Assembly: GCA_019022495.1 (NCBI GenBank)
Contig: JAFEKR010000001.1
Location: forward strand, 4,340,001 to 4,404,000
Length of the DNA: 64,000 bases
Direction of reading: 5' to 3'
Source of the DNA: Epichloe hybrida
Taxonomy: Eukaryota; Ascomycota; Sordariomycetes; Hypocreales; Clavicipitaceae
The notes below the pieces were generated by a model. It was not told where the DNA came from. It was given only the letters and a program-made list of their open reading frames with translations, and ran no database searches. Each line of letters opens with the position of its first letter. Within the stretch, counting starts at the first letter, position 1. Made by a program: the position numbers and the translations under genes. Below, piece after piece: positions 1 to 60,237 of this stretch.

Positions 1-1292
1 GACATGCCCGAGACGCCGGGCGGCCAGATCATCCGCGAGCCCGGCCCGGGCGTCTTCTGCGACGACGCCATGGACCCCGTCATGCAGCTGTGGCCCAAGG
101 CCAGCGACGAGACGAGGACGCGCCTCGTCAGTGATGCCATGAGGGATCTCAACAGCGTCGGCCTCGTGGGCGTCCACGACGCGAGCACCCTGCCCGCCGA
201 CGTCGCCTTGTACAACAGGCTCGCCGACGGCGAGGACTGGACCGTCCGCGTGTACGCCATGCTCGAGTGCGACTCGCGAAACTCGTACTGTCCCGGCGAC
301 GCCACCAGGATAGCCAGGAGCGATTCTCGATTCTGGCTCCAGAGCGTCAAGCTGTTCGCTGGTACGTCGCCAGCCCCCCCCCCAAAAAATGACCCTAAAA
401 GGATGGGAAAAGAAGGACAAAGAAGGACATATAATCCGTATATACACATCTAACCCAATCCAATCACATAGACGGCGCCCTCGGCAGCTGGGGCTCCGCC
501 ATGCTAGAGCCCTACGCCGACAAGCCCAGCTCATCCGGCACTCTCCTCATCAACTCGACCGCAATGGCCGACCTCTCCAAGACCTGGGCCCATGCCGGCT
601 TCCAAGTCAACGTCCACGCCATCGGCGACCGCGCCAACCGCCACGTCATCGACGCCTTCGTCGCCGCCCTCGTCCACGTCTGCCCCGAGGCCTCCCCGGA
701 CAACTACGAGGCCCTCCGCATCTGCCAGGTCAAGCACCGCTTCCGCATCGAGCACGCCCAGATCGTCCACCCGGACGACCAGGAGCGCATGCACCGCATC
801 GGCATCATCCCCTCGCTCCAGCCCACCCACCCCACCGACGACATGCGCTTCGCCCAGCTGAGGCTCGGGCCCGACCGCACCGCCCGCCGCGCCTACCGCA
901 TGCGCTCCTACATCAACATCGCGCCCCTCCTCGGCAGCGACTTCCCCGTCGAGCCGCCCAACCCCTTCCACGGCATCTACGCCGCCGTCACCCGCAAGAA
1001 TCCCGCCACCGGCCGGGGCCTCAACGGCTCCTCGGACGGCTGGCACACCGACGAGGCCCTGACCTTTGACGAGGCCATCTGGGGCTTCACCGGCGCCACC
1101 GCCTACGGTGCTTTCCTCGACGGTAGAGCCGGCTTGATCAGGGACGGCGCCTTTGCTGACTGGGTTGTCCTGGACGAACCAATCGAGGATATCCCCATCG
1201 AGCACCTCCGCACCCTCAAAGTCAGGGAGACGTGGGTTGCCGGCAAAAAGGTCTACGCGAGAGAAAAAGGAACGGATGCCCCAAAAAGTTGA
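1..1292 (+). CDS. Amidohydrolase family 3 (YtcJ-like), 3' part; exons <1-361, 472-1292
   Basis: Predicted metal-dependent hydrolase of the amidohydrolase superfamily, related to bacterial YtcJ; the substrate is unknown. The gene enters from the left edge, so start and N-terminus are missing. Frame 1 is open to 361; a GTACGT donor and a CACATAG acceptor at 470-471 remove an intron of 110 bp and join the codon G|AC, giving the family motif DGALGSWGSAML. Then come HAIGDRANRHVIDAF (metal-ligand His and Asp), RIEHAQIVHPDD (second His block) and LLGSDFPVEPPNPF (catalytic Asp), in the order normal for this family. About 390 residues are visible and the stop is TGA at 1290-1292. The 3' end converges on the acyltransferase gene. 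Family assignment is secure, function is not. Confidence 0.88.
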
Positions 1293-1705
1293 AATAATTT
1301 GCTGTCCTTGTGTAAAATGCTCTTGTGATTTATTACCCGTCATGTTATCGATTTGCATTTGGCCCATGGGAAAAAAAAAATTTCTCCTTTATTCTTATTT
1401 CAACCCATCTTCGTGGCGGACCTTCGTCATTTTGCCGGCAGTTGCAAGTTGTCTCTCCTAATCCGCATCATGTGGAAACTTTCCTCGCACAAATGCCGTC
1501 AGCGGTGCCAAAAAAGAAGAAGAAAAAAAATCTCGAAGAAACATGTGTGTCCTTCGAAGACAGCAACCATCATAAAACCTGACCCGAGCTGCTTTATATA
1601 CCTTCTCGTCGTAGATATGTGTAGTTTGAACCGTTTTGATTCATCAACCTTTCTCCTTCATGCTTCAAGCGTCGACATCTCAAACTATCATTTGTCCGCT
1701 TAATC
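1293..1705. other. Intergenic, 3' ends of convergent genes
   Basis: This holds the 3' flanks of the amidohydrolase and the acyltransferase. It is A/T-rich with A tracts near 1372 and 1525. Short open frames here lack codon structure or family resemblance, so I call no gene. Confidence 0.6.
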
Positions 1706-3340
1706 TCACCTTTCTGAAATACACTTGGTCTCGAACCACTTGGCAAACTTGACTGTGGGAACGTCTACCGCCCTCCAGAACACATCCGCCCACCAAATTA
1801 CAGTTGGGATGCAAAACATGGCACCCAGTACAAAGCCAGCGTTGTACCAGTATCCCTCGACTCCCGTCAGTCCATATGCCATCTTCTCCCAGTGGTAACC
1901 AACTGTATGCATTGCTGGGCCGTGCATAAGGTACAAAGCGTATGAGATCTTGCCCAAGTATTGGACCCCGGCTGAGTTGAAGAACCACTGCCAATTGCGG
2001 GAGTGACCAACAGCAAGGACAAAAGCCACCGCACCTATAGATTGCCAGTATCGGTACTGTTCTTCCGTCCACCACTCAGGGATAAGTGAGGTCAAATACA
2101 CCCATCCGGGAGCCATCTCCCCTCCGTCGTCAGGCTGCGACATCAAATATAAGCCCAAGAGGCTGACTAGGGCCCAGAAGACCCCCTTGAGAAGGCTTTG
2201 TGGTCTAGGAGTTTGCGGCGGCTCACTTTGAGGGAGAGCGGGAGGCGAAACGTGCGCTCCACGAATATGGTCCATCTCCGCGAGCAACATGCCGCAGAAG
2301 AACAAGCATAGTTCCCATCTCGAATGACGATAAGTGAACCACATGATGCCGCCGACAGTTAAGAATCTGACGCTGGTTCGAAGTCGGGCAGTGCCGATGA
2401 TCGTGAGGAAGAGATAGAGGGAACATCGAAATTCCAGCGGAATCGTCCATAAGTGTACATCGTACGCTGGGAAGCACACTGTTAGCAATTAGCTGGCGTT
2501 TTGACGATTTCGATTCTCACATGTAGATCCACCAAACTTATGCCAGCCAAAGACATGAACGAAATTGTACATGTGAATAATCCAGTCTCTAAACTGAGCA
2601 TACGAGGATTCCATGCGGCTGGGATGAGGCTCGACAACGTTCTTCATATACGTGCGATCTTCGGCGAATTCCCTCGTCCACTCGTAAGCTCCGACTCGCA
2701 AAAGGCAGACAATCATGAATGTGGAGATGGCAGTCGGTAGATAGAGTCGTATACCTCGACGGAAGGTCAAAGAGCTCATGGTAGTCGCAAAGTCGGAAAA
2801 GGCTCCATTGCGAATTAGTTTCAGCGGCCGATACGACAACGCATACCCCGAAATGACGAAAAAGATGCATACGGCGGGAGGCCCCTGGTACCATAGCCTC
2901 AAAACAGGAAGTTTCAAGAAGTGATAGTTGTCTTCCTCAGTGCCCCAGGTTTTGGCAATGGTGAAGGCTTGATAGAAGTAATGGCAAAAGAAGACGGTGA
3001 GAGCAGCGAGCCCTCTCATGCCATCCAAATATGCCGTCGGGGCTAGTTTAGGAGGGCATATTTGTTCTCGGGTATGTCTTCTTTGCAGAAAGCTCGGTAT
3101 CAGAAAGACGAGGCCTCGTATAAATAGCCAACGCCAAGACGCGGAAGGTAGTCGATTATAGGAAACCGTAAATGCAGAACTGTGCTTGGGATAACTTGGC
3201 AACTTGACCCTAACGTGACATTGTGATTCGGTGTCACTGATGCTGACATCACTTTCGATTTCGGTGATATGTCGCTCATCTAAAAGTCCTCTTTTCTCTT
3301 CGTGAGAGTGAGTTTGCACAAGTTTGTCGTTTTCCGTCAT
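1706..3340 (-). CDS. Acyltransferase-3 family integral membrane protein; exons 3340-2521, 2466-1706
   Basis: Predicted O-acyltransferase of the OafA/YrhL (acyltransferase 3) family, which moves acyl groups onto sugars or small molecules at a membrane. Fungal members are often found in metabolite clusters, but no cluster is present here. The intron at 2467-2520 (GTGAGA...TTCCCAG) joins T|CG and gives GGSTSYDVHLWTIPLEFR, which matches the family's WTIPVEF block. The family start block DGMRGLAALTVFFCHYF lies near residue 110, preceded by a polar, probably cytosolic N-terminus. Several hydrophobic segments follow, for example AVCIFFVISGYALSY and GVFWALVSLLGLYLM. Total is 526 aa, a usual length. 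Its 3' end faces the amidohydrolase gene. Substrate cannot be inferred. Confidence 0.88.
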
Positions 3341-6042
3341 TTTCCTGCAACGGGAACAGTGCCGTCCATGTATGGCACGTCATATATTGAGAGTCGAAAG
3401 TAAAAGGCAGTCAAGGAGAAGTACAAACTAGAACAAAGGACCGAAAGGAAGCAAAAAAAAGTTGAAGGGTATCGAAGGAAAAGTAGAAAGAGGAAAAAAG
3501 ACAAAGAGAACAAGAAAGACGAAACCGATCGTCAAGGGCCACAGGAGCGAGGTCTAGATGCGGCACTAGACTTTGACACTCTCGACCTGAGCACTTGAAC
3601 ACCGCAGGTTCAGTTCAAAATGCACTGAAGAAGCAGTCAGCTCGTCCACCCCAAATTTTCTTGTGACGGAAACCGTAACAAGATGTGAGCGGGGACAGAC
3701 TCGGGGAGAAATGGAAGAGGGCAGATCAACAAGGTTGACGGAAGAGCGGAGTGAGCAATGACAACACTGCAAATCGTCCTGTTGCTACATTTTCATTCAT
3801 ACAGTGTGCAGGAGGGACATTTCTGAGAAAGAATGTCAATGTGAAAACACTTGAGACCGTGCAGCCACTCCCCCTGCCATCACCTGTTCGCAGCTGACTA
3901 CGGAGTACATACGGACGTATAAGATTACAAGACCGCATAGGCAGCTCCGCATGGGGTGCTCCTTCTTCAGACTCTCAGATGACCAGAATGACGAATCCGC
4001 CCACCACGTTCGAGACGGAGAACTCCGACTGGCCAACAAAGAAGACACATTAACGATAAAAGTCGTCGAAGAAGAAGGACGAGCGAGGCGGAGATTCGTA
4101 ATGCACAGGCATCTTCGTGGAAGGTGCGTTATTGACACCGTGCGTATCCCCTTTGAGTGCGCGAACACCTCAGGCGGGTCGCGGACCCACAATCCTTCCT
4201 GGATAGGTTGCATGTAATAATCCGTACACCGATTTTTTTATGTATTGAGGCAAATAGCAAATAGCCCTTAGTGCCCTAGGCCAAGAAAGGTAGCCAGACT
4301 TCTGTTGTTGAAGGATTGTCTAGCAAAATCAAGTAGTCCGTACCCTTTATCTGCCCTACCCTTGATCTGCCCATAATTATACTCATCCTCATTAGCCTAA
4401 GCCCCTCCCATCCGTATGTACTCCGCCTGAGGTTCGCACACTCAAAGGAATGTGGAGTCACTGTTTCGGCCAAGTTGCAGGTGTCAGGCAAGACGGCATC
4501 AAAACGACACGAACACATTGGGGCAGGAGGAGCCCACAGGAAGCACATTGGGTCTTCATGTCGTGCAATGCGCGGGTCTGGCTCTGTCGCTGTAACAGGC
4601 AAACGCGGAGCTCCTCGATCTTGACGTGTTTCAAATCGCGCCGCTTTATGTAGGTTCACGTCGTCTGGCCTGCCGAGATGGGCGACTTTCTGTCGTTCGT
4701 TTTCTATTCTTGTCCGCTTCTTCCGCGAAACATCCCGCGCCTCCCGGAGGCTCAGACATACTAGCATATCTTCCAACATTCTCACTAGCATCTTGCATCA
4801 AAGGAAAGTCTGTGGCAAGATGTTGGTTCAAAGGCACAGTGTTGTGCAGCACAAACACAGTTGTTGTTTGTCCATCCAAACACATCAGCCACGATGCACT
4901 TGATTCACTCTGGCCTTGATCGGTCGTTCATGCGGATTCGACACAGCCGCTTTATCTTTAGCTGCTCCATAGAACGTCCCTCCCGCACCCCCTCCCTTCT
5001 ACATACACCGGTACCGGTCAGGCAATCCAAATCCTCGTGGCAGAACTAATGATGCAGGCACGCTTTGTGGCTGGGTGTGCCCGTAAAGATCCACTTCATT
5101 TTCGGGGTTTTGCCTGTGCGCTATTGCTCCCTCCCTCACGGACACACTTGTCATCTTTTATTTTCTTTCGGTTCTCATCTGTCGCCACATCTTCTGCAAT
5201 AATGGTCGACGTGTCGTTGGTTGTTGGCTCCAATTTCCCCGGCATCCGCCCGATCTCTCCACGCGCCAGTTGGCCAAAAAAAAAAAAAAAAAAAGGTTCT
5301 AAACCATCGATCAACATGCACACGATCTCACGATCAGATAGAGCATGTCCCCTCCTTTTTGAAACACCATAGCTTGTTGCCCGTGCCGAAGAACTTTGGC
5401 ATCTACGCAAGGGCCTCATTGGCTCAAACACCCCGCCGCTGCAGGGCAGGCGACGACGACAACCCCTTGACGCTCCATCCCGTCGATCTCCGTCTCTCTG
5501 CGACGTTTCGAGCTTTGAAACCCACGGGCAAATGCCTATTTTGAAGACTGGCTTGTGACAACTCTCCAGAGACTAACCACATCTTCCCGAGTGAACGTTT
5601 CTATTTCTGCGGGACACAAGACGCTAAAGCTCAGCGGGCACACGACCATCTAATCCACTTGAGCATGCATGTTTCCGTAGATAAACATCAGGGTCTCCTG
5701 GCTTCCTATTGCCGGACCTCGGCTGTGGCATAGTCCGATGTTCGAGGCCCTGACACGCCAGATAATCCAAAATTCATGACATTTATACAAGACCAGATGT
5801 CTATTTTCCTAATGGCCCAGCACGCGTTTATGCTCCTTCCGAATTATCCCCCATATGCCGCGGGTGATGCCCCGATTCGGGGCCCATCGCTTCCATGATG
5901 CGCCCTGTTAATATAACAGCGCACTGTATATAAATCCTATATTCCCAATTGCATAATCCAAAAGAACGCCGTCGTAAATGCCTGATGATTCATGTTTCTT
6001 GCTCTCTTTTTTTTTTTCAGTTTCCCGGCTTCTCCAAGCCAT
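3341..6042. other. 2.7-kb intergenic region without a supported gene
   Basis: It separates the start of the acyltransferase gene from the 3' end of HEM2. Contents I can see: TACGGAGTA at 3899-3907, an inverted-repeat element at 4150-4448, an A run of about 18 at 5277-5294, and T tracts near 6007-6018. Open frames of up to 171 codons occur on both strands but overlap one another and match no family I know. Confidence 0.5.
4150..4448. mobile_element. MITE-like element with imperfect terminal inverted repeats
   Basis: The left end at 4150-4177 reads CCTTTGAGTGCGCGAAC followed by ACCTCAGGCGG. The right end at 4423-4448 is its reverse complement, with one C/T change and a 2-nt indel. The arms enclose about 245 bp with no coding capacity. 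Size and structure fit a non-autonomous DNA transposon relic. I could not see a clean target-site duplication (flanks GCGTAT and AATGTGG), and no second copy was noticed in this window, so the class is unassigned. Confidence 0.5.
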
Positions 6043-8861
<2,819 letters not shown>

Positions 8862-9790
8862 CTATAAGCCCCTAAGAACAGTGTTATCACGCTTGTCCAA
8901 CCGTGTGTATCTCTGCTTCAGGACCTCCGAAACGCTACGCCTGTCACCACTCGGCCTCTCAAACCGCTGATCCAGCGCCTTTTGCACGGGATTCAGCGCC
9001 GCCAAGTCCACATGTCCGAGGCCAGTGCCCTCGCCAGTCAACCCGACTGCGGACCTGGCCTTGCCCACAGCCTCGGTAGCCTTCTCCTTGCCCTTCTCCA
9101 GCGCCGACTTGACGGCTGTTTCTGCCTCGACGGCCTTCTCGCAGACTTGCTTCTCGGCCCTTTGGGCTTCCCTCCACGCCGCTAGTCGTGCTTGCAAGGC
9201 ATTGTCCTTGACCTTGGCGGCAAAATCTTCCTCCTCTGCCTTGGCCTGTTCAAAGGCCTCCTTTGCTTGGGCCTTGATCTTGCCGGCGGCGGATTCTGCG
9301 CCAGCCTTGGCCCTGTTGGCGCCCGCCTCCAGCCCGGTCTGGACCTTGGCAGCACTGTCCTGCATGGACTCACCGAACGCCGTGGACCAGAGAGACGCGA
9401 TGGTGCCTTCTAATCCTTCGCGGAAGTCTTCCCAGTCGGTGCGTTGCACCCATCTCACGGCGTTCTCGATCTCGTCGTTCCATCGATCCTTGACGACTTC
9501 GATGGCCTCGGCTCGCTTGGCGGCAGCGACCTCGGACCGGGTAGGCGGTAGCGGCTGGGGGATGGGGTCGATGAGGCCTTGGATGGCGAGGGCTTGGGCG
9601 CGCAGAGATCGGCCTTGCTCTTCGCGGTTACGCTGGTGGGCGAGCACAGATAGATACGCGATGGAGAGGGTGAGGGTGGCGCCACCAGTCTGCGCGGAGA
9701 AGATTGGAATTAGCTTTCCATCGAGGAAGAATAGGCCATGAGTACACTGGGAAGTGGAATACTGCGTACGAAACCGGTCACGAAACCCAT
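8862..9790 (-). CDS. MIC12: MICOS complex subunit MIC12 (AIM5-like); exons 9790-9770, 9689-8862
   Basis: Predicted inner-membrane protein of the MICOS complex, which holds cristae junctions together. A tiny first exon (ATGGGTTTC..., 9790-9770) codes MGFVTGF; the intron 9690-9769 (GTACGC...CGCGCAG) brings in TGGATLTLSIAYLSVLAHQRNREEQ. The joined N-terminus, with a glycine-rich transmembrane helix at residues 5-25 and then HQRNREEQGRSLR, is what fungal MIC12/AIM5 proteins show. Next come QPLPPTRSEVAA, WNDEIENAVRWVQRTDW and a long Ala/Lys/Glu coiled coil. Total is 282 aa. It shares a 590-bp divergent intergenic region with the bL17m gene. The first exon is too short for an ORF scan and rests on the splice model. 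Confidence 0.85.
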
Positions 9791-10380: not shown

Positions 10381-11168
10381 ATGGCCGGTGGTCTCGTCAA
10401 ATACCGGCATCTCAGCCGCGACTCATCCGCCAGAAAAGCCCTCCTGCGCGGCCTCGTCACCCAGCTGGTCCAGTACGAGCACATCCAGACGACACATGCG
10501 AAAGCAAAGGAGGCCCAGCGACTGGCAGAGAAGCTGATCACGCTGGCCAAAAAGAACAATGAGCCGTGCAGAAGATCTGCTCAGGGAATTCTTTACGTAT
10601 GTCACCGATTTTCACAAGACGGATCGGCCATGTCCCGCAATGAAGTCTGATGGGTCGGTCCACGGGGAGGGATTCAAAAGCCAACTAATTATACCTGTCG
10701 CAGACACCGCATATCCTCCTCCCCAAACTATTTGGCGAGCTAAGAAACAGATATCTCACCCGAGAAGGCGGCTACACACGCGTCACCCGCACAGAACCCA
10801 AAAACACGTACGATCAGGCAGAGAGCTCCATCCTCGAATTCGTCGACGGCCCCAAAGATTCGCGGTTCATGATGACCGCAAAGACGATTGCGAGGGACCG
10901 TCTTCTGGGCCGGGAGCCTACAGCGTTGACAATGCAAAACGCGAAGAAGGTGACGCAGTTTAGAGGACAGAAGGACCTGGACGACATGGTGGAGAGATTT
11001 GTGGCACTGCAGGCGGGAGAATCACCAGTGACGGCGGATGATACGGCGGATGGAGATCATAGTAAAGAGGCGGCTGAGATGGCGGATCGGGAGAGCGCCA
11101 AGGTGAAGGGGCTTATGGGTGATGGTGCGCCCGAGTCGGCAAAGAAGGTGATTAACCTGAAGAGGTAG
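10381..11168 (+). CDS. MRPL8: Mitochondrial large-ribosomal-subunit protein bL17m; exons 10381-10596, 10704-11168
   Basis: Component of the mitochondrial 54S subunit, homologous to bacterial L17. Exon 1 codes MAGGLVKYRHLSRDSSARKA, LLRGLVTQLVQYEHIQTTHAKAKEAQRLAEKLITLAKK, the conserved N-terminal L17 block. The intron 10597-10703 (GTATGT...TCGCAG) leads in phase 0 to TPHILLPKLFGELRNRYLTR and EGGYTRVTRTEP, the second L17 block. The remaining ~110 residues are a fungal C-terminal extension ending KKVINLKR. Total is 226 aa. Translation through the intron would stop early, which supports splicing. It is divergent from MIC12. Confidence 0.94.
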
Positions 11169-58506: not shown

Positions 58507-58941
58507 ATGTCTCGCCGTCCAGCAAAAGGCGACTACATAGAGACAGTAAGACCTGCTCCACGCAACCACCTTTCCCCCCCGCCCGCCTCGCGTCGCAGCT
58601 GATACTTTTCTTCTTCTTCCCCCCTCCCCCCCCAGGACACAGGCAACAAGGTCGCCCGCAAAGCCATACTCGTCGGCACCCAAAACATCATGCTCGGCGG
58701 CAAGACGGTCATACAGCCCGAAGTCATGATACGAGGGGACCTCGTCCGCACGGCGAGTTCGTCGTCGTCGACGACGACGCCTTCCTCGGGTGCTGCCTCG
58801 ACGGCCGTCGCGATAGGCCGCTACTGCTTCCTCGCGCGGGGCGTCCTGCTCCGCCCGCCGGGGCGCATGTACAAGGGCGCGTATACGTACATGGCTTGGG
58901 GGAGTGTTCGGGCGCGTACTTTGGGGCGAGCCATTCTATAA
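58507..58941 (+). pseudogene. Dynactin subunit p25 (DCTN5), 3'-truncated; exons 58507-58545, 58636-58941
   Basis: The p25 subunit sits on the pointed-end cap of dynactin and is a left-handed beta-helix protein of about 180-190 aa. Exon 1 gives MSRRPAKGDYIET; the intron 58546-58635 (GTAAGA...CCCCCAG) leads to DTGNKVARKAILVGTQNIML, GGKTVIQPEVMIRGDLVR and GRYCFLARGVLLRPPGRMYK, GAYTYM. Homology stops after this Met (58891-58893), where the family continues PL-x-IGDNVFVG. The frame then runs antisense through the amine oxidase gene for 15 codons to a stop at 58941. About half the protein is missing. A Ser/Thr/Ala insert (TASSSSSTTTPSSG) is present in the helix. Either a real deletion or an assembly join; see the junction finding. 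Confidence 0.82.
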
Positions 58942-60237
58942 AGCCACGGACTTTTTGGCCCTGATGGGACTTGAGCCAAAAGGCGTGTGGGAAGCTGATG
59001 TAGACCTGGTCTTGGTCAGCCTAGTAGTGAGCGAAGTGGTGGAGTTGCTTGGTTGCTCTCACCTTCTCCAGGCATCCGTAGCCGATGGAGTTGATGGCCT
59101 GTGTTAGTCGGGGGGGAAGAGCAGGCACAAAGGCGGACGAGTTCCTTTTAAGCCAGCCTAGAGGTGTTGTGATGACTGCTTCATCGAATGATAGACTCTC
59201 GCCACTGACGAGCTGTATCTCTACTTTGCCGCCTATGTCTGATGGATACCGTATCTGCTTTGCTTCGGAACGAAACCTGATGTCAGCTCCGGCGAGGGCC
59301 GGGGCAGCAACGTGGTCGAGTATCTTCTGATATGTACCGCCACAAAAGAGGTTATCTGATGATGATGGTGATGATGATGATGGCGATCAGCGCTTTATTC
59401 CAGAGAAGAAAACGCGGTTTCGCGACATTGTTTGTCCTACCTCCTTCAATGCATTCCTCTAGCCAGAAGTATTTCAGACTTTGACGAGAAATCGGGCTGC
59501 CGATGAAGGAACCCCATTTTTCAGCCATATCCAGAACAATCTCTCGATTCCTTTCGAATTCTGCATCCGTCCCGGGAGTGATTTCCGGTATTTTTTCGCG
59601 GAAAAAGTCAAGCAAGCTCTTGTTGACGTCAGTCTCGGCCCCCAAATCGTTCGAATGCTCGAAAGCCTGCTGCACAACGTCCCATACCGTGGTGCTGTAC
59701 GTTTTGCCTTCATCACCAGGTAACAGGTCGCCCGCAGAGGTGTAAACGCCGGTGTTATCGGCCAATCTTCCCACCGGAGTATCGGTGCTGTTGGCTAGGT
59801 CAAGAATGGGGTTATCGTCAGTGCCGTGAATCCAGTTGGGGCCAAGATCAACCAAGTGACCGTTGGCAAGCATTTGCTGATGAACCCGGCCGCCAACGCG
59901 GTCTCTAGCTTCCAAGATGGTGACGCTGAACCCATTTTGGAGGAGAATTTCTGCACAGCGGAGGCCAGACAGACCGGCACCTACGATGGCGACATGAGGA
60001 TTGGATGCGGAGGAGCATGTACGCTATAGTGAACGGCGGTATAAGTGAATGATGCGCATGCTCATGATGAGTCGGCGCGGTGCTCAATGAAGCGGGAATG
60101 GAGCGCTGACAAAACCACATGCGAATACGATTGACAGAACAGGGCGTCCCAAAATCCCAAAAAAAAGCATGACGGGTTCCTGCTCCGGCCTACCGTCGGC
60201 GGCATACCTTTGTGAGATTGGATTCCGCCGGCGCCAT
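58724..60237 (-). pseudogene. FAD amine oxidase (polyamine oxidase type), 3'-truncated; exons 60237-60208, 60023-59441, 59355-59063, 59005-58724
   Basis: Flavin amine oxidase, probably acting on polyamines. Exon 1 (MAPAESNLTK) and exon 2 give PHVAIVGAGLSGLRCAEILL, the GxGxxG FAD fold, then ARDRVGGRVHQQ and LGPNWIHGTDDNP. Exon 3: DNLFCGGTYQKILDHVAAPA and FDEAVITTPLGWLK. Exon 4: VYISFPHAFWLKSHQGQKVR, GFIEWLAPKYAPEHSPK. Family resemblance ends near 58895, after about 340 of the usual 480-520 residues, so the C-terminal FAD-contact region (the GEHT...GY-x-EGA block) is missing. The reading frame then continues antisense through p25 to a stop at 58724. Introns 60024-60207, 59356-59440 and 59006-59062 keep frame. 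Exon 1 is the least certain. Confidence 0.82.

What the first reader, a model, noticed from the sequence alone, without database searches (positions are those of the whole stretch)
58860..58945. Head-on junction truncating two conserved genes (dynactin p25 and an amine oxidase)
Seen: p25 resemblance runs on the plus strand to the Met at 58891-58893, and amine-oxidase resemblance runs on the minus strand to about 58895; each then reads antisense through the other. Known: both families normally continue for 90-180 further residues. Inference: the two genes were convergent neighbours and a deletion removed both 3' ends, with only a few shared bases (ATGG) at the join; an assembly error would look the same. 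If real, the dynactin pointed-end cap would lack a working p25 unless another copy exists.
Basis: partly seen in the sequence, partly recalled or inferred. Interest (0 to 1): 0.75.

Follow-up and report, generated by a model that had tools for sequence, protein, structure and literature searches.

The report
One damaged copy, one intact copy
In the assembled genome of a hybrid grass endophyte fungus, one of its two copies of a neighbouring gene pair is missing the 1.1-kb stretch that held both genes' ends, but the copy inherited from the other parent is intact, so the fungus should still make both proteins, and the gap may even be an assembly error.

Summary
The window belongs to an allodiploid: contig C1 (8,313,425 bp) and the 79.9-Mb total identify the published Epichloe hybrida Lp1 assembly. 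The homeologous stretch on contig C91 carries the complete convergent pair, p25 (195 aa) and amine oxidase (499 aa), 319 bp apart. Against it C1 lacks 1,084 bp (266 bp of p25, the spacer, 499 bp of amine oxidase) plus 11 bp in small gaps beside the join. The lost DNA has no other match in the assembly. A public protein, P0033, equals the C1 p25 for 68 of 68 residues and runs on intact, so the truncation is derived or artificial.

Two origins remain: assembly error (0.5) or a real deletion in one redundant copy (0.42), a kind already documented for Lp1. The frayed p25 edge (three collinear gaps in 28 nt) resembles uncorrected Nanopore sequence and tips me slightly to error. The shared bases at the join are TCG (58908-58910), not ATGG. 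Either way an intact p25 gene is present. Ordinary; low interest.

The parts
58507..58545 (+). p25 (DCTN5) exon 1, C1 copy
   Evidence: ATG, GT donor at 58546; same structure on C91
58636..58893 (+). p25 exon 2, cleanly retained part (to Met codon 58891-58893; 99 native residues with exon 1)
   Evidence: collinear with C91 to this base; Pfam DCTN5 match
58894..58910 (+). frayed p25 edge: 17 bases matching the next 28 bases of p25 with gaps of 2, 5 and 4 nt
   Evidence: gapped match found at this one site only in 9.5 kb, both strands; 18-base pattern found nowhere else in the assembly with up to 1 mismatch
58908..58910 (.). join; TCG shared by the p25 side and the amine-oxidase side
   Evidence: comparison with C91 on both sides
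58911..58941 (+). readthrough of the p25 frame antisense through amine-oxidase exon 4, stop 58939-58941
   Evidence: translation
58908..59005 (-). amine oxidase exon 4, retained part (residue 334 is the last native one)
   Evidence: collinear with C91
58724..58907 (-). readthrough of the amine-oxidase frame antisense through p25 (61-residue tail), stop ends at 58724
   Evidence: translation
59063..59355 (-). amine oxidase exon 3
   Evidence: splice signals shared with C91; Pfam PF01593 match
59441..60023 (-). amine oxidase exon 2 (FAD-binding N-terminal part)
   Evidence: splice signals; Pfam PF01593, NAD_binding_8
60208..60237 (-). amine oxidase exon 1
   Evidence: ATG and GT donor shared with C91

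Best explanation
The window is one subgenome of the allodiploid fungus Epichloe hybrida Lp1. At this place its copy of the convergent p25 / amine-oxidase pair lacks 1,084 bp (plus 11 bp in small gaps) compared with the homeologous copy on contig C91, which cuts both reading frames, while the C91 copy is complete. p25 and the amine oxidase should therefore be supplied by the other parent's copy, and the dynactin pointed end need not lack p25. Shown: the join, the intact homeolog, no other match for the missing DNA in the assembly, and an intact C1-type p25 in a public protein set. Inferred: supply of protein from C91. Open: whether the gap is in the fungus or only in the assembly. I lean slightly to an assembly/consensus error (0.50) over a real deletion in a redundant copy (0.42). 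The confidence given here is for the common core (one copy cut, other copy intact).
For: The junction DNA finds its own place plus two pieces on C91 that lie 1.1 kb further apart. C91 is collinear with window 9516-64000 and beyond (94% identity over 81,432 aligned bases). Intact p25 and amine-oxidase frames on C91. The deleted stretch matches only C91. Contig length 8,313,425 and total 79.9 Mb equal those published for Lp1, described as a diploid interspecific hybrid. Dynactin p62 is also found twice, on C1 and C57. AT-rich blocks (at least three of five 1-kb bins under 35% GC) in 7 of 20 sampled 5-kb stretches, 17 of the 20 from C1 and 3 from C91, as described for E. festucae (passages of PMC6374014).
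Against: No expression data: that C91 p25 and amine oxidase are transcribed is inferred from intact frames. The genome here has 156 contigs, the paper says 158 scaffolds. That C1 and C91 share nuclei rests on the literature on Lp1, not on a test here.
Confidence: 0.93

Rival explanations
1. The gap is an assembly or consensus error. The C1 chromosome carries an intact pair; a stretch poorly covered by short reads was bridged by raw Nanopore sequence that skipped about 1.1 kb.
For: The 17 bases at the join match the following 28 bases of p25 with gaps only (2, 5, 4 nt) and no mismatch; of 20,000 shuffles a fraction of 0.0003 reach that score, and within 9.5 kb, both strands, only this one site does. 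Scattered small gaps of this sort look like uncorrected Nanopore sequence (my reading, not tested). The paper's assemblies combined the longest Nanopore reads at 25-fold coverage with Illumina and 454 reads in MaSuRCA 3.4.1 (passage). P0033 is an intact C1-type p25. The retained parts show no decay: dN/dS 0.13 and 0.31 against 0.15 and 0.24 for two intact neighbours.
Against: Only three bases are shared at the join, so this is not a collapse between repeats. All 10 C91 ORFs of 400 aa or more that have a hit of at least 80% identity on C1 are covered by one uninterrupted match; in the other direction 9 of 10 C1 ORFs of that size are covered to over 90% by one match and the tenth to 82%, so the consensus is generally good. 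Clusters of three or more indels within 25 bp are not rare between the homeologs: 101 in the whole alignment, coding and non-coding not separated, 80 listed, which weakens the argument from the frayed edge. The source of P0033 is unknown and may be a parent species.
Confidence: 0.5
2. A real deletion of about 1.1 kb in one homeolog, by end joining at 3 shared bases (TCG), tolerated because the other subgenome supplies both genes; it arose in the hybrid or in the strain of the parent that founded it.
For: Cox et al. 2014 (PMC3945203; [quoted passage not shown] The join lies inside a long contig that is collinear with C91 on both sides.
Against: A join backed by short reads should not carry three extra small gaps in 28 nt of a coding exon; these gaps show no shared bases of their own (by eye, alignment). 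An intact C1-type p25 is known. No reads were available.
Confidence: 0.42
3. The C1 genes are complete through a distant spliced 3' exon.
Against: The missing stretch matches only C91, and on C91 the lost parts lie within single uninterrupted last exons.
Confidence: 0.02

Closest known systems
Homeolog-specific gene deletions in Epichloe hybrida Lp1 (Cox et al. 2014, PMC3945203)
   Same: Same strain; one parental copy lost, the other kept; some neighbouring genes lost together
   Different: Here only the 3' parts of two convergent genes are missing. The paper's cases were found by RNA reads and PCR-RFLP, mostly as whole genes (for one cluster a remaining fragment is proposed), and it says partial deletions are difficult to diagnose. 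Which parent C1 represents was not determined here.
Loss of single homeologs by deletion in the fungal hybrid Verticillium longisporum (PMC8406199, passages)
   Same: Allodiploid fungus losing one of two copies by deletion
   Different: Different genus; counted as whole genes and gene clusters
Dynactin subunit 5 / p25 (PF21711)
   Same: C91 copy matches over profile 10-161 of 182
   Different: C1 copy matches 10-55 only and lacks the hexapeptide part
Flavin-containing amine oxidase (PF01593)
   Same: C1 exon 2 and exon 3 frames match; C91 exon 4 matches profile 286-437 of 443
   Different: C1 exon 4 with its readthrough has no Pfam match

Membership tests
Dynactin p25 (DCTN5), C1 copy as a working member | full left-handed beta-helix with hexapeptide repeats | tested here: not met
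   ends after 99 native residues; the hexapeptide match of the C91 copy lies at residues 117-149
Dynactin p25 (DCTN5), C91 copy | near full-length match to PF21711 and to solved DCTN5 chains | tested here: met
   132.3 bits, cut-off 40; matches solved dynactin subunit 5, E 1.5e-37
Flavin amine oxidase, C1 copy as a working member | C-terminal part of the FAD-binding domain (GEHTAP region, residue 461 on C91; motif role recalled) | tested here: not met
   native part ends at residue 334 of 499
Flavin amine oxidase, C91 copy | intact frame and PF01593 match towards the C-terminus | tested here: met
   499-aa spliced frame; exon 4 matches PF01593 286-437 of 443; enzyme activity not tested
Post-hybridisation homeolog deletion of Lp1 | other parental copy intact | tested here: met
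   C91 pair intact
Post-hybridisation homeolog deletion of Lp1 | orthologue intact in the donor parent | tested here: inconclusive
   P0033 is an intact C1-type p25 (68 of 68 residues identical), source organism not given
Post-hybridisation homeolog deletion of Lp1 | deletion present in genomic DNA (reads or PCR) | not testable with these tools
   no reads held

The most novel reading that the evidence does not exclude
A real partial deletion has fused the ends of two convergent homeologs in Lp1, so that two truncated genes without their own 3' ends are transcribed into each other and p25 dosage is halved, a class of loss that the published expression-based survey of Lp1 said it could hardly see.
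Probability: 0.35. Interest if true: 0.25.

Novelty: new member of a known kind. Interest (0 to 1): 0.12.

Why it matters
If real, it is one worked example of partial homeolog loss in a young fungal allopolyploid, the kind the published survey of Lp1 named as difficult to diagnose. If artificial, it is a warning that single-copy truncations in this hybrid assembly need read support before being counted as gene loss. In neither case is dynactin function expected to be lost.

Tried and rejected
Tried and dropped: (1) CATG or ATGG as the shared bases, based on reading 58894-58907 as amine-oxidase sequence (my note still says CATG). Rejected: the residues this would give (EHSPKP) break a motif that reads D-S/T-N-P in 7 of the 8 amine-oxidase relatives I fetched and S-N-P in the eighth, and the gapped p25 match scores higher than the amine-oxidase one (12.3 against 5.9). 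(2) Filler copied from elsewhere: no other site in the assembly with up to 1 mismatch. (3) Finding the same join in the 5.8-billion-protein set with the 114-aa C1 frame: none among the best 120 listed of 301. That set is clustered at 90%, so absence is weak evidence. (4) Relaxed selection as a clock: no clear excess. (5) Naming the parent of C1: not achieved. (6) Other interrupted frames as a yardstick (non-overlapping ORFs of 200 aa or more). From C91: 40 ORFs, 38 with a hit, 29 covered to 85% by one match, 2 without hit, 9 partial. Of those 9, 2 lie at this join (one is an antisense frame), 2 were looked at (one fits an intron difference, one at about 10.65 kb is unresolved), 5 were not examined. 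From C1: 45 ORFs, 41 with a hit, 29 covered to 85%, 4 without hit, 12 partial; of the 12 only the place near 90.4 kb was looked at, the same as from C91. The p25 frame itself was dropped from that count because a longer antisense frame overlaps it. (7) Papers seen but not used for a claim: passages of PMC11042379; listings.

Full report
What was checked. The junction region was read and searched against the whole genome of the window (G000, 79,862,988 bases, 156 contigs). The 86 bases of the finding match themselves and two places on contig C91: query 1-34 at 2,018,084-2,018,117 and query 49-86 at 2,019,227-2,019,264. The surrounding 4.5 kb match the same C91 stretch at 91% (left) and 85% (right) identity. 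C91 is collinear with the window from 9516 onward, with 94% identity over 81,432 aligned bases and 823 indel events.

Which organism. The contig that holds the window, C1, is 8,313,425 bp long. The paper PMC7922272 (sections 5 and 17 and passages seen) gives 8,313,425 bp as the largest contig of the 79.9-Mb assembly of Epichloe hybrida Lp1, a diploid interspecific hybrid. It counts 158 scaffolds, against 156 contigs here. The best-listed named protein relatives are Clavicipitaceae, and 7 of 20 sampled 5-kb stretches hold AT-rich blocks, as described for E. festucae (passages of PMC6374014). Dynactin p62, another subunit, is also found in two copies, on C1 and C57.

Anatomy. On C91 the p25 gene has two exons (C91 2,017,742-2,018,411) and encodes 195 residues. 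The amine oxidase lies convergent (start at 2,020,525, stop ending at 2,018,731), has four exons and encodes 499 residues; the spacer is 319 bp (gene models are mine, from splice signals). Consecutive locus tags put the same two genes side by side in Claviceps citrina, C. africana, C. maximensis and Conoideocrella luteorostrata, so adjacency is old; orientation there was not seen. On C1 both genes keep their upstream exons, splice sites and frames, but the sequence jumps from p25 exon 2 into amine-oxidase exon 4. Clean p25 homology ends at 58893; 58894-58910 match the next 28 bases of p25 with gaps of 2, 5 and 4 nt; amine-oxidase homology begins at 58908, so TCG is shared. The main gap is 1,084 bp of C91 sequence: 266 bp of p25, 319 bp of spacer, 499 bp of amine oxidase (arithmetic on the coordinates). 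p25 keeps 99 native residues (97 of the 195 of C91 are lost), and the amine oxidase keeps 334 of 499. Both frames then run antisense through the partner to a stop.

Consequence. The C1 p25 lacks the hexapeptide part of its beta-helix, and the C1 amine oxidase lacks its C-terminal third, so neither should work (inference). The intact C91 genes remove the prediction that the dynactin pointed end lacks p25. [quoted passage not shown] Expression of the C91 copies is inferred, not shown.

Derived or artificial. A protein of source 'lgn' (which I take to be assembled public reads; recalled), P0033, is identical to the C1 p25 for 68 of 68 residues, including the variable Ser/Thr stretch, and then continues as normal p25. 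So the C1-type allele is intact somewhere: in a parent, another strain or Lp1 itself. The organism is not given; the cluster has 2 member sequences and its longest contig is 12,107 bases. The missing DNA matches only C91. The retained coding parts show no clear decay (dN/dS 0.13 and 0.31; two intact neighbours 0.15 and 0.24).

Real or not. For a real deletion: Lp1 is reported to have lost at least 20 genes from one parental copy, several as neighbours, and partial losses were said to be difficult to diagnose (PMC3945203, sections 8, 9, 21, abstract and passages). For an assembly error: the paper's assemblies combined 25-fold Nanopore reads with short reads, and the p25 edge at the join is frayed in a way that looks to me like uncorrected Nanopore sequence; the resemblance to p25 is unlikely to be chance (fraction 0.0003 of 20,000 shuffles; one site in 9.5 kb). 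A short-read-backed real join should be clean. Against error: all 10 C91 ORFs of at least 400 aa with a good hit are uninterrupted, and 9 of 10 C1 ORFs of that size are covered to over 90%; and clusters of three or more small indels within 25 bp occur 101 times in the homeolog alignment (coding and non-coding not separated; many of the 80 shown lie in the less similar stretches at 29-34 and 41-47 kb), so the frayed edge is suggestive, not proof. The label 'new member of a known kind' applies if the deletion is real; if the error reading holds it is not a real feature.

Literature. A search for papers with both Epichloe and dynactin gave one paper, about Arp1 as a growth marker (listing only). 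The accession of the Lp1 assembly appears in one held paper, PMC7922272. The main text of PMC3945203 does not contain the words dynactin or amine oxidase. Within these searches I found no report of this particular truncation; supplements were not searched.

Noticed in passing
window 1-9515: This part has no match (E up to 1e-20) in the adjoining 12 kb of C91, so the collinearity of the two subgenomes breaks at window 9516 (C91 1,966,586).
   Followed up: no
window 9516-64000 and C1 beyond, against C91: Of 16 indels of 40 bp or more between the homeologs in one alignment, 14 are sequence missing from C1 and 2 from C91 (the present gap is split into 2 of the 14). The five others of about 200 bp or more were printed but not tested for genes or repeats.
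   Followed up: partly
window 59356-59440: Amine-oxidase intron 2 holds a run of CAT/ATC-like triplets and differs in length between the homeologs (85 against 72 bp).
   Followed up: no
window 10640-10700: A 5-nt and a 1-nt difference between the homeologs lie within a 348-aa C91 frame; not resolved whether coding.
   Followed up: partly
P0160 (protein set): An amine-oxidase fragment 92% like C91 and matching the C1 retained part in 52 of 54 residues reads across intron 3 as if spliced, so it may stem from a transcript of a related endophyte.
   Followed up: partly
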